Shown here: positions 30,195-34,339 of the stretch, piece after piece | How positions within the stretch are numbered: position 1 is the stretch's first letter | Layout of the letters: each line of letters begins with the position of its first letter | Assembly: GCF_022530855.2 (NCBI RefSeq) | Contig: NZ_CP099567.1 | Location: forward strand, 2,108,001 to 2,172,000 | Length of the DNA: 64,000 bases | Reading direction: 5' to 3' | Source: Candidatus Vondammii sp. HM_W22 | GTDB taxonomy: Bacteria > Pseudomonadota > Gammaproteobacteria > Chromatiales > Chromatiaceae | Made by a program: the position numbers and the translations under genes | Notes under the pieces: generated by a model | Told to the model about the DNA's origin: nothing | Database searches by the model: none | What the model saw: only the letters and a program-made list of their open reading frames with translations

Positions 30195-30790
30195 TGAGCT
30201 GGGGATATTTGTCGTCCCATCGGTTAGAGAAATTATCAAGTTCCAGTAGCACTTCATCTTCACAATCCAGGTAAATAATGGGATAGACCGCATCCAGTAG
30301 CCTAGATAGCCATTCAATCACTTGTTCAATAACACATCAGTCACTTTGGGAATCAAGGTGGCGGAGACATCAGCACCGTACATTTCTTTAATGGTCGTGA
30401 CGATTTCTCGTGTTGTCATGCCCTGGACATACAAGAAAATAATCTTGTCGTCCATGGAAGTAAATCGACGCTGGTGTTTTTTAACGAGCTTGGGCTCGAA
30501 ACTCCCAGCTCTGTCGCGTGGTGTATCGAGCTCGAACTGGCCAGCTTCCGTTCGGTTAGTCTACTGGCATAGCCGTTGCGGTTATTGGCAGCTGCGGACT
30601 GCTCGTGCCTTTCAAAGCCAAGATGATCATCTAACTCAGCGTTCAGTGCCGCTTCGACCGTGATCTTGGTCAGCATTTGCCAAAACTCGTTGAGATCTTC
30701 TTCAGTTTTGATGTTTTTAGCGGCCGCTTGGGCTATCGCTTGGAGCTCTTTCTTGTCGATCATCTGCCTATCCTCTCCCTTGTTTGGGTT
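30195..30790 (-). pseudogene. IS256-family transposase fragment with internal deletion
   Basis: On the minus strand it starts at ATG 30763 (MIDKKELQAIAQAAAKNIKT), nearly identical to the intact element at 43231. It is frameshifted near 30560, continues through FEPKLVKKHQRRFTSMDDK, and jumps from the IVYLDC segment directly to LDNFSNRWDDKYP, so the central DDE domain is deleted. The terminal sequence ACAGTTACACAGAATTTAGG near 30800 is the IS left end. Confidence 0.75.
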
Positions 30791-30848: not shown

Positions 30849-31892
30849 TCACTTCCTCTTAATATCGACAGGCACCAGATCATCAGCGCCTTCCTGCGAG
30901 TAGTAGTCATACTTGCCTTGAAGACGAGAAGTGAATTGCCAGGCTTCATTGAAGCTCAATCCACTTTTTTTCGGGAATATCAGTTTGATATAAAGTCCCT
31001 CTTTTCTGAACTCCAGCAGCTTATCCAATTGATTTTCCAGGACTGCCTGACTCACCGTACTATAGCCGGGTTTATCGGTAGTCTGGTATTCGATAATCAG
31101 GCGTCCCACGGATTTCGTATAGCGCACTTCCACAAGGTAATGTCCCTCCAGAGAGCGGGCGGGTCTAATCAGCTTGGTATACTTGAGTTTCAGCTCATCG
31201 AACTCACCCTGGAGGGTATTTATCTGACGCCCAAATCTTCGCTCGGTTGTCTTCAGCTCCAAAAGCTCGAGAGACTGCAGCCCATAGGTTGCCTGCAGGT
31301 TGGTCAGTTGTTGCTGAACGGATTCATGCTCTTGTTCCAGGCTCGCCAGATTCACCTGCACTGCGGCAAGCTGCTGCTGGGTGAAGTCCAGATTCTGCTG
31401 CAGGGTTTCAAGATTCTGTTGTTGGGAATTGATGGTGGTGGCCACCCCCTTCAATCGCTGTCCAAGAGTGTAGTTTTCGGCGACCAGCTGGTTCTGGCGC
31501 AGGATGAGTGCCTTTTTGGTTGCCTCAAGAGTGGCAATGACCTCGGTTTGCATGCCGATGGTTGATATCTGGCTCTTGCTCTGTTCATCCATCTGCATCA
31601 AACGGATGCGCAGCGTGGAGAGTTCGTTTTCAGTCGCGATCAGTTTGATGGCCAGATTCTCTTTTTGCTCTCCAGTGGTTCTGGCCAGCTCTTGAGCCGT
31701 TCGTTCCGCTTCCATCGTGGCGCGAAGCTGGTTTACCAGCTCAATGTTACGCATTAGCAGAACCACGAAACTGACCATGAATATCATCACAATGACCGTC
31801 ATGATATCGGTGAAAGAGGGCCAGAAGCTCTCCTGGTTCATCCCTTCCTGCCGGTTGAGGCGAAGGTCTATAAAGCCGCCATCAGGACTCAT
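30849..31892 (-). CDS. Membrane-anchored coiled-coil protein, MotB/ZorB-like partner
   Basis: A 347-residue protein with a short N-terminal tail, one membrane segment at ~28-48 (DIMTVIVMIFMVSFVVLLMR; the aspartate before it is placed like the proton-carrying Asp of MotB/ExbD/ZorB), a long Gln/Leu-rich coiled coil (~50-235) and a ~100-residue C-terminal domain (EGHYLVEVRYTKSVGRLIIE and on) that I do not recognise and that is not a clear OmpA/peptidoglycan-binding domain. Its ATG overlaps the stop of the upstream gene (ATGA), so the two are made as a pair. Function unknown; a proton-driven stator-like complex is inferred. Confidence 0.7.
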   Translation of the reverse strand: MSPDGGFIDLRLNRQEGMNQESFWPSFTDIMTVIVMIFMVSFVVLLMRNIELVNQLRATMEAERTAQELARTTGEQKENLAIKLIATENELSTLRIRLMQMDEQSKSQISTIGMQTEVIATLEATKKALILRQNQLVAENYTLGQRLKGVATTINSQQQNLETLQQNLDFTQQQLAAVQVNLASLEQEHESVQQQLTNLQATYGLQSLELLELKTTERRFGRQINTLQGEFDELKLKYTKLIRPARSLEGHYLVEVRYTKSVGRLIIEYQTTDKPGYSTVSQAVLENQLDKLLEFRKEGLYIKLIFPKKSGLSFNEAWQFTSRLQGKYDYYSQEGADDLVPVDIKRK

Positions 31893-32767
31893 GACTCTTC
31901 AGTCAGCCGGAAGCCGTGTTTCAGTAGCCGTTTGATATCTTCCATCTCCCCAACAAGAATAGGGGCGATTCTGCTGTCATATACTTTCATCAGTGACGAT
32001 GCCATGCATGTCTCGAAGTCATCGAAGAACGATTGGGACTCGCGCATCTCTTCGGCAAGCTCTTTGATCGACTGCTGAGAGTTTTCCATGCGGCTGATCA
32101 GGCTCTGCAGGGAACGGATCATGCCTGTTAACTCAAACAGTATGCTCTCGGTCTGGATCTGGAAACGGGGTATCAGATGGGTGGCTGTTATCTGCTCGAT
32201 GGCACTAACCAGATTGGTCTGTACATCGGTGAGTTTCATGTAGAAATAACCAAAGTAGAGATAGCAGATAATGGCGGTGATAGTTGTCGAGAGGGCAGTG
32301 GACATACCGTGAACCACCAGACCCATCCCATCGACATTGATGCTGGTTGCCAGCAGGTCAGAGGCACCGGTCAATGCAATGGATAGGGACACGATTGTGC
32401 CGAATACACCGGTCAGAATCAGGATGTTGTTGATGAATTTCGGCAGGCTGTTGTTTATGCTTTCAGATGCAACCAGGGTGGTGGCAAGTGCGCCATGGTT
32501 GATCGGTGTATTGGATTTATGCAGTGTTTCAAGGATCTTGTAGCGATGCACAATGATCCTGTCTGCCGGAACATCCCGTATCGCTTCCAGATTGCTGTCC
32601 AGGTTCTGCATAAAGTGCCGGATAGCGCTCTCTTCCTGGCTGTATTGGATCAGGCTGATAAGTATACGCAGAAGACCCAGCAAGAACAGGCCCACAATGG
32701 TGCCGTTGATAATCAGTCCGGTCCGGGTCAATTGATGGCGGAAATAGACCTCACTGATGAACTCCAT
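31889..32767 (-). CDS. MotA/TolQ/ExbB-type proton channel family protein
   Basis: From ATG 32767 (MEFISEVYFRHQLTRTGLII) the protein is 292 residues; an ATG at 32827 would add 20 Cys-rich residues and looks less likely. Membrane segments lie at ~17-40 (INGTIVGLFLLGLLRILISL), ~113-135 (NILILTGVFGTIVSLSIALT) and ~145-172 (LVVHGMSTALSTTITAIICY). The last two match the MotA/TolQ/ExbB pattern (G-x-x-G-T-V-x-x, then small-residue helix with T-T). The C-terminal ~120 residues are coiled-coil. The partner gene follows with ATGA coupling. No nuclease or helicase of a Zorya system is nearby. Confidence 0.75.
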   Translation of the reverse strand: MEFISEVYFRHQLTRTGLIINGTIVGLFLLGLLRILISLIQYSQEESAIRHFMQNLDSNLEAIRDVPADRIIVHRYKILETLHKSNTPINHGALATTLVASESINNSLPKFINNILILTGVFGTIVSLSIALTGASDLLATSINVDGMGLVVHGMSTALSTTITAIICYLYFGYFYMKLTDVQTNLVSAIEQITATHLIPRFQIQTESILFELTGMIRSLQSLISRMENSQQSIKELAEEMRESQSFFDDFETCMASSLMKVYDSRIAPILVGEMEDIKRLLKHGFRLTEES

Positions 32768-32827
32768 TTTCCAGAACAGTACACCGGCTCCAAATCGCTG
32801 CAAACAGAAACATGCACAAGATGACAT

Positions 32828-33061
32828 TGCGGCTGAAGTGGTGACGTAGCAGTAGGCTTTCCAAGGATATTCCCCGAATGAAAAATTAGAGTCTTGGGTA
32901 GTTTACCACAAACCCAATCGTGGATTTAGAATGGACGGTGTAAGTTTTCAATCATAAGTCCGTGCTCTCTCAAAAATAGTTGCATGGTGTTGTTGAGAAC
33001 TGGCCTGTGTTATCGATAAGTTAGTGGGCTGCTATCTGATTCGTTGATTTTATGGGGGTAT
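32828..33061. other. Intergenic region between the proton-channel pair and the glycerate kinase pseudogene
   Basis: No gene seen. It should contain divergent promoters; I do not see clear boxes. Confidence 0.4.
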
Positions 33062-33741
33062 ATGCACGATATCAAAAAGGCCCGGGCGGATCTGTTGGAG
33101 ATCTATCATGCCGGTTTAAAAGATGTAGTCGGCAGAGAGGCTGTCTTCAGGCATCTGGACGACCGGCAGTCTGATCTTTCACTGATCGCCCTGGGCAAAG
33201 CGGCTCAGGCGATGGACAGAGGGAGCGTTGGACAGATTGGGTGAGCGGATTGTCGATGGATTGGTTATCTCCAAGGTGGGACGCTGGGTGTTGACCTGCT
33301 CCAAAAGCGAGGTCTGAAGATGGTGGAGAGCAGTCATCCGATTCCGGATAAAACAAGCCTTCTGGCTAGTCAGCGACTTTTGGTCGCCGGCAGTGATGCC
33401 GATATTGCATTGGCCGATTTGAATTTGCCTGAGTGGTTGCAGCTGTTAGTAGCTGATGGCGAGGAACAGACTCTGCCCGATAACAGTAACGTAACAGTCA
33501 GTATCATTGCCTGTCTGCGTGATGCACGGAAGGCCGCCGCTGCGAAAGCGCGCGAACTGAGTTACGGCGTGAAAGTGAGTCATGCCCATATCAGTGCAGA
33601 TGCCGTCAATGCCGGTCGGCGGCTGGCTCTTGCAATTAACAGATTCTACCCCCGATGTATTTGCTTGGGGGCCAATTGTCTGTTTGCCGTATGCGCCGGG
33701 GCGTGGTGGCCGCAATCAGCACTTAGCGCTATCGGCTGCAA
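33062..33741 (+). pseudogene. Glycerate 2-kinase (MOFRL/DUF4147 family), decayed and truncated
   Basis: ATG 33062 opens MHDIKKARADLLEIYHAGLK, with SLIALGKAAQAM. A frameshift near 33220 moves to ALDRLGERIVDGLVISK, and another near 33290 to MVESSHPIPDKTSLLASQRL, the substrate region. Later TVSIIACLRDARKAAAAKAREL and finally PYAPGRGGRNQHLALSAA, the conserved GRGGRNQ motif of the MOFRL domain. Several segments are missing between them, and an IS5 fragment replaces the 3' end at ~33742. The intact enzyme phosphorylates glycerate. Clearly non-functional. Confidence 0.8.
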
Positions 33742-34339
33742 CCTTCTGGCGGCGTTTGTTATCGCCCCATGCCTCAGGGCTGTCCCCGGCTTTGATCTGC
33801 CTATTTTCCTCTCGCGTATTTACGTTGCCTGGGTATTGGAACGATAGCGGCATCTGCAATCTGCCCCTTGCGAGCACTGAAGCCTGCTGCATCAATCTGG
33901 ATCAATAGTTCTGAAACGAGTTTACCGACAAGGCCCTGTTCTTTCAGGCGCTCACGATACACCCACATCGTTTTAGCACCGGGCACCTTATCCTCCGGGC
34001 TCAGCCCAAGAAATAGCGATCCGGTATTTGGAACTCTGTTTTGATCACCGGACAAATTGAACAAATGCTATAGGACCAACACCTTGAACATCAGCACCGC
34101 ATTGTAAGGTGGACGCCTACCTTTACTGGGATCACTATTTTCATAAACTGGATCCAACAATACCCGAAAAGCCTCCCAGTCTACGGTCCTTTCCAGCTTT
34201 GGCAGCGAGTCTCCCAGTTGCTCTAAGGAGTTCAAGTCGGTCTTGATGATCAAAAAAACTTGGCTGCATGGCTTTCGCCAATAGTTGGTTAAGTTGGCTA
34301 CTGCTACCACTGGTTATAGAATGTTTTCAGAGGCTCTCT
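33742..34339 (-). mobile_element. IS5-family element fragment 2 (transposase N-terminal half)
   Basis: Minus-strand frames carry LERTVDWEAFRVLLDPVYEN, RPPYNAVLMFKVLVL, GLSPEDKVPGAKTMWVYRER and IDAAGFSARKGQIADAAIVP, the N-terminal half of the IS5-group transposase, with frameshifts. The upstream end GAGGCTCTCT lies at 34339. The downstream half is missing and the junction with the glycerate kinase pseudogene is at ~33742. Confidence 0.75.

What the first reader, a model, noticed from the sequence alone, without database searches (positions are those of the whole stretch)
30849..32767. Orphan MotA/ExbB-like plus coiled-coil MotB/ZorB-like membrane pair
The two overlapping genes code for a MotA/TolQ/ExbB-type channel protein and a single-pass protein with a possible proton-binding Asp, a long coiled coil and an unrecognised C-terminal domain. 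Zorya anti-phage systems pair such proteins with cytoplasmic effectors, but no nuclease or helicase gene is next to them, and the C-terminal domain is not an obvious OmpA domain. They are intact in a region otherwise full of dead genes, which suggests they are useful. This is the best candidate for an undescribed stator-like or defence-related module in the window.
Basis: partly seen in the sequence, partly recalled or inferred. Interest (0 to 1): 0.65.

Follow-up and report, generated by a model that had tools for sequence, protein, structure and literature searches.

The report
Heptad-locked ion-motor gene pair
Two side-by-side genes encode an uncharacterised membrane motor of the ExbBD/TolQR/MotAB kind, whose second protein carries a very long helical rod that changes length almost only in steps that keep its coiled-coil phase; it is an inherited chromosomal gene pair rather than a phage-defence system, and in this genome the first gene appears to be damaged.

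Summary
The pair is real. B (30849-31892, -) has one TM helix with an invariant Asp, a coiled coil of about 195 residues and a C-terminal head. A (31889-32767 as given, -) has an ExbB/TolQ fold. Together they are an uncharacterised two-gene subfamily of the ion-driven 5:2 stator superfamily, found in about 15% of sampled Gammaproteobacteria-class genomes and in two families of other classes. It is not Zorya: no ZorC/D/E nearby, no long ZorA tail, no OmpA domain; neighbours are housekeeping genes, and phage and plasmid collections hold none. The nearest sequence relatives are the partners of PRK09039-type coiled-coil/OmpA stators; B's head is modelled as TolR/ExbD-like instead.

New observation: rod length is heptad-quantised. 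In 106 of 108 proteins the span from the membrane Asp motif to the head is 7n or 7n+3 residues; control distances in the same proteins are not quantised. This points to a continuous, register-locked dimeric shaft, about 29 nm here, close to the width of the periplasm.

Correction: the window's A gene is not intact. Its native 5' end (TTG 32864) is in another frame; a one-base shift lies inside the first TM helix (32786-32801). B is intact.

The parts
30849..31892 (-). Gene B, 347 aa: MotB/ExbD-type protein with one TM helix, long coiled coil and C-terminal head; intact
31889..32767 (-).
32768..32864 (-). Native 5' end of gene A (TTG start at 32864, start of TM1), readable only in another frame than the rest of the gene
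32786..32801 (-). Stretch in which the reading frame of A changes by one base, inside the first TM helix
31889..31892 (-). ATGA overlap of the stop of A and the start of B
31806..31808 (-). Codon of Asp29 of B, invariant in the family (FWPSFTDIM), at the N-terminal end of the TM helix
31170..31751 (-). Coiled-coil rod of B (residues 48-241); span from the FWPSFTD motif to the head motif is 220 = 7n+3
30900..31169 (-). C-terminal head of B (residues 242-331), TolR/ExbD-like in the model
33044..33847 (+). Remnant of the divergent glycerate-kinase-like (DUF4147/MOFRL) gene that flanks the pair in relatives; broken here. Not part of the module, marks the ancestral position

Best explanation
A and B form an inner-membrane ion-driven motor of the 5:2 type: five A around two B. 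Ion flow past the B Asp turns the A ring relative to the B dimer. The B dimer leaves the membrane as one continuous parallel coiled coil that works as a register-locked shaft or stay, about 29 nm long here (195 residues x 0.1485 nm), and ends in a TolR/ExbD-like head near the peptidoglycan or outer membrane. The pair is a vertically inherited envelope module, not a defence system. Shown here: pair conservation, predicted ExbB-like fold of A, invariant Asp and pore Thr, heptad-quantised rod, no conserved third gene. Inferred: 5:2 stoichiometry, ion use, rotation, periplasmic side of the rod, what the head binds. In this genome the A gene has lost the reading frame of its first TM helix, so the module is probably decaying here, unless the shift is a sequencing error or a downstream start rescues it.
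For: Fold of A: ExbB Z 13.4, TolQ 13.2, ZorA 11.4, MotA about 10. Pore Thr of both inner helices invariant; Asp29 of B invariant. A and B adjacent in almost every locus. Rod span 7n or 7n+3 in 87 of 89 proteins, 0 of 200,000 simulations as extreme; 21 of 21 in families fetched afterwards; pooled 106 of 108 with three unquantised controls; hydropathy period 3.5. Head best matched by TolR (Z 7.2, rmsd 2.9 over 85) and ExbD (6.5). Housekeeping context and no mobile copies.
Against: The head match is below the level that excludes a common arrangement, and profile comparison with ExbD/TolR is not significant (E 0.069). A few lineages have rods of 388-848 residues, far too long for a straight shaft across a periplasm. 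Stoichiometry and topology were not modelled. Frame damage in the window shows that this organism may not need it.
Confidence: 0.6

Rival explanations
1. A Zorya-like or other anti-phage module: the motor senses envelope disturbance by phage and signals through A's cytoplasmic tail to an effector encoded elsewhere.
For: Single-sequence search of the PDB gives a ZorA (8vvi_F) as the best hit for A (E 2.3e-5); the N-terminus of B scores weakly with ZorB models (E 4e-5); ZorA is second by profile comparison (E 3.8e-6).
Against: No ZorC/D/E or other conserved effector, no OmpA domain in B, short A tail, housekeeping neighbours, conserved chromosomal position in relatives, no phage or plasmid copies.
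Confidence: 0.08
2. A force generator for outer-membrane work in the manner of TolQR or ExbBD that acts with an unlinked third protein, the counterpart of TolA or TonB; the rod of B only positions the head, it does not carry torque.
For: A's best fold matches are ExbB and TolQ and B's head resembles TolR/ExbD. TolA and TonB need not be next to the motor genes (general knowledge).
Against: No TolA/TonB-like gene is linked. The own genome already holds complete TolQR and ExbBD pairs. TolR and ExbD have no such rod, and the heptad lock suggests that the rod transmits phase, which mere spacing would not need.
Confidence: 0.22
3. In this genome the pair is a dead or dying pseudogene operon without function, whatever its relatives do.
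For: A's TM1 is out of frame; the glycerate-kinase neighbour is broken and a Mutator-family transposase fragment lies 85 bases past B; a further ExbBD-type copy in the same genome is also broken.
Against: B and the other 292 codons of A are open and show coding-type substitution; a one-base shift can be a sequencing error; ATG codons at 32827 and 32767 could start translation.
Confidence: 0.5

Closest known systems
PRK09039-type stators (NCBIfam NF006543 'peptidoglycan-binding protein' with its MotA/ExbB-like partner; function untested as far as I found)
   Same: A subunits align over 209 columns, E 3.4e-11; B has the same plan of TM Asp in a WPxFxD motif, then a coiled coil (E 2e-6 to NF006543; sequences); rod lengths also quantised
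   Different: B ends in an OmpA-type domain there, in a TolR/ExbD-like head here; TM motif FWPSFTDIM instead of I/VWPGFVDAL; A ends in GFRL here
ExbBD and TolQR
   Same: Fold of A (Z 13), pore Thr, TM Asp, probable fold of B's head
   Different: PF01618 below cut-off, no PF02472 hit; profile E only 7e-4; a coiled-coil rod between TM and head; no linked TonB, TolA or Pal
Zorya ZorAB
   Same: Fold of A (Z 11.4), weak similarity of A and of B's N-terminus
   Different: The long extension sits in B here, in ZorA's cytoplasmic tail there; no OmpA domain; no ZorC/D/E; not a defence context
Flagellar MotAB/PomAB
   Same: Fold with four TM helices (Z 9-10), TM Asp
   Different: No profile match (E 0.51), no OmpA domain

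Membership tests
5:2 ion-driven stator superfamily | A subunit with the ExbB/TolQ/MotA fold | tested here: met
   model of an intact relative: ExbB Z 13.4, rmsd 3.7 over 205 residues
5:2 ion-driven stator superfamily | Acidic residue in the single TM helix of B and Thr in the pore helices of A | tested here: met
   Asp29 of B invariant; GVFGTI and ALSTT Thr invariant or nearly so in A
5:2 ion-driven stator superfamily | A5B2 stoichiometry, ion flow and rotation | not testable with these tools
   complexes could not be folded
ExbBD/TolQR | PF01618 and PF02472 above curated cut-off | tested here: not met
   PF01618 18.5 of 22.9 bits; PF02472 not among the hits of P0001 nor among families shared by many B proteins
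ExbBD/TolQR | TolR/ExbD periplasmic fold in B | tested here: inconclusive
   Z 7.2 and 6.5; profile E 0.069
Zorya | Linked ZorC and ZorD, or ZorE | tested here: not met
   no conserved third gene; PADLOC scan of 131 neighbours finds no Zor protein
Zorya | OmpA-type peptidoglycan-binding domain in ZorB | tested here: not met
   no PF00691 among the hits of P0001 at E <= 1, nor among the families shared by the most of 34 B proteins
Zorya | Long cytoplasmic ZorA tail | tested here: not met
   147-193 residues from the first pore motif to the conserved end of A; the best ZorA-model hit of the class has an open frame of 781 aa
PRK09039 (NF006543) | Above the curated cut-off, with a C-terminal OmpA domain | tested here: not met
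   27.9 of 305 bits, and only N-terminus plus coil align
MotAB | MotA sequence family and OmpA-domain MotB | tested here: not met

The most novel reading that the evidence does not exclude
A distinct class of two-component rotary motor in which a phase-locked coiled-coil drive shaft, long enough to cross the periplasm, carries rotation or torque from the inner-membrane A ring to a TolR-like head at the outer membrane, with no third gene in the operon.
Probability: 0.3. Interest if true: 0.75.

Novelty: new variant of a known kind. Interest (0 to 1): 0.5.

Why it matters
Ion-driven 5:2 motors underlie motility, nutrient uptake, envelope stability and phage defence, yet many non-flagellar members are uncharacterised. 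This family carries a built-in, testable signature: its rod changes length almost only by whole heptads or the 11-residue equivalent, which suggests that the membrane Asp pair and the distal head must keep a fixed rotational phase. Whether torque or phase travels along the B shaft can then be asked directly by inserting 7, 4 or 3 residues. The comparison also suggests that the distal head is interchangeable in this branch of the superfamily (OmpA-type in the sister family, TolR-like here).

Tried and rejected
Zorya membership: rejected on three defining features. A conserved third component: looked for in up to 10 kb on each side of about 90 loci and not found; only the Sedimenticola/Thiodiazotropha-type relatives share neighbours (glycerate-kinase-like DUF4147/MOFRL, Slp lipoproteins, TsaB-like), by common descent. 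Mobile origin: no phage or plasmid match. PDB search with the B profile returns myosin, tropomyosin and other coiled coils, which is composition, not kinship. Foldseek alone gave nothing significant for B. Profile-profile comparison of the head with ExbD/TolR was not significant. No OmpA-fold chain is among the 50 structural matches listed for B, which proves nothing. Literature searches found no paper on this pair; the library is open-access only. A tree of A subunits was not attempted because the families are too divergent; profile comparisons were used instead.

Full report
Observation. Pfam sees A only below threshold (PF01618, 18.5 bits against 22.9) and nothing meaningful in B beyond coiled-coil noise. 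Among family members, 29 of 32 A proteins give the same family at E <= 0.1.

The pair is a real, conserved family. Of 34 sampled genomes of the window's own taxonomic family, the window's included, 16 carry a clear ortholog of A (E <= 2.1e-78). In the class, 60 of 369 genomes match at E <= 1e-5, 55 of them at E <= 1e-68, with a wide gap between these and the distant relatives. A phylum-wide sample adds two families of other classes at E 1e-122 to 1e-81. A scan of named genomes gives 48 loci, among them Sedimenticola, Thiodiazotropha, tubeworm and Solemya symbionts, Methylococcales and Arenicellales. A and B are adjacent in almost every locus.

The window's A gene is damaged. Relatives begin with (L)ESIQLRR.FSRNILIRM followed by TM1. 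In the window this stretch exists as LESLLLRHHFSRNVILCMFLFAAI, but in another frame than the rest, and the change of frame falls within TM1, at 32786-32801, with the native TTG start at 32864. Restart at ATG 32827 or 32767, or a sequencing error, cannot be excluded. B is intact. Codon-position differences from a same-genus relative (third position 0.52-0.55, second 0.16-0.19) show coding-type constraint on both genes.

Fold of A. An AlphaFold2 model of the intact Sedimenticola relative (pLDDT 82.7) matches ExbB (Z 13.4, rmsd 3.7, 205 residues), TolQ (13.2), ZorA (11.4) and MotA/PomA (about 9-10). The Thr residues of the two pore helices are conserved. By profile-profile comparison the nearest family is the A partner of PRK09039-type stators (E 3.4e-11 over 209 columns), then ZorA (3.8e-6 over 60), then ExbB/TolQ (7e-4 over 76); MotA gives nothing. 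These alignments are small, so the order is indicative.

Anatomy of B. Asp29 in FWPSFTDIM is invariant. The model is one helix from 26 to 241, then a beta-beta-beta-alpha-beta-alpha head (pLDDT about 75-84). The best structural matches of the head are TolR (5by4, Z 7.2, rmsd 2.9, 85 residues) and ExbD (8p9r, Z 6.5; 8pek, 5.9); unrelated beta-alpha folds follow from 5.8 down. The sequence profile comparison aligns the same helix-strand-helix elements but is not significant (E 0.069). I call the head TolR/ExbD-like in fold with moderate confidence, not a proven homolog. The sister family has an OmpA-type domain in this place (sequences).

Heptad-locked rod. The number of residues between the TM motif and the head motif is 7n+3 in 77 and 7n in 10 of 89 distinct proteins, with 24 distinct lengths from 182 to 848; no modulus from 3 to 12 other than 7 shows such a pattern, and 0 of 200,000 simulations were as extreme. 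The two classes differ by 4, which is what an 11-residue (hendecad) step gives. Loci fetched afterwards from the two families of other classes all obey the rule (21 of 21). Pooled, 106 of 108 obey it, while three control distances (head to stop, inside the head, A tail) spread over the residue classes. Hydropathy peaks at a period of 3.5 in 85 of 89 proteins, 3.48-3.52 in all, and one phase counted from the membrane motif fits the 7n+3 class. The few sister-family B proteins measured follow their own rule (six are 7n+5, one is 7n+2). The simplest reading is a continuous parallel dimeric coiled coil whose register ties the membrane Asp pair to the distal head. That the flagellar MotB TM dimer itself behaves as a coiled coil with a defined register is published (PMC10659934). 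The window protein's rod after the membrane, about 195 residues, would be about 29 nm long; the E. coli inner-to-outer membrane distance was measured at 30-32 nm in one study (PMC8824477). Rods of 388-848 residues in a few lineages do not fit a straight perpendicular shaft and remain unexplained.

Context. In the window's relatives the pair sits next to a divergent glycerate-kinase-like gene and, in many loci, Slp lipoproteins and a TsaB-like gene. Elsewhere the neighbours change completely and are mostly housekeeping genes such as HisB, ferrochelatase, YidC and MnmE/MnmG. No third gene is conserved. Of 131 flanking proteins a handful match PADLOC models, none of them Zorya. No phage or plasmid record carries A. 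This argues for an inherited envelope function and against defence.

Mechanism and status. Most likely A and B make a 5:2 ion-driven motor whose B dimer carries a rigid rod to a distal head at the cell wall or outer membrane. Pair conservation, predicted fold, Asp, rod periodicity and context are shown; stoichiometry, ion flow, rotation, side of the rod and target are inferred. A 2025 survey groups non-flagellar relatives as heterogeneous 'generic ion transporters' and leaves many appendages unexplained (PMC12505986). Zorya biology is taken from PMC11890865. I found no description of this pair in the searched literature. I rate it a new variant of a known kind.

Noticed in passing
G000:C1:947638-948167 (L168): A further ExbBD-type copy in the same genome is broken: ExbB matches in short separate frames and the ExbD frame changes half-way. 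More decay besides the window.
   Followed up: partly
window 33044-33847 (+): Remnants of the glycerate-kinase-like gene (DUF4147/MOFRL in relatives) that flanks the pair in many relatives, now in short separate frames.
   Followed up: partly
window 30416-30763 (-): Fragment of a Mutator-family (IS256-type) transposase about 85 bases past the stop of B.
   Followed up: partly
L204, L205, L207, L209, L210, L236, L237: B proteins of the OmpA-headed sister family (PRK09039 type) also show quantised rods: 222, 278 and 285 residues are all 7n+5, one at 226 is 7n+2.
   Followed up: partly
L019:561-1379 (-): Next to a distant A-like gene lies a MotB-like protein whose C-terminal part looks by eye like a von Willebrand A domain (HLVVDASGSM); Pfam reports only a weak MotB_plug hit. 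Perhaps another exchangeable head.
   Followed up: partly
L065, L066, L068, L102, L103: B proteins with rods of 490-848 residues, far longer than a periplasm is wide.
   Followed up: no
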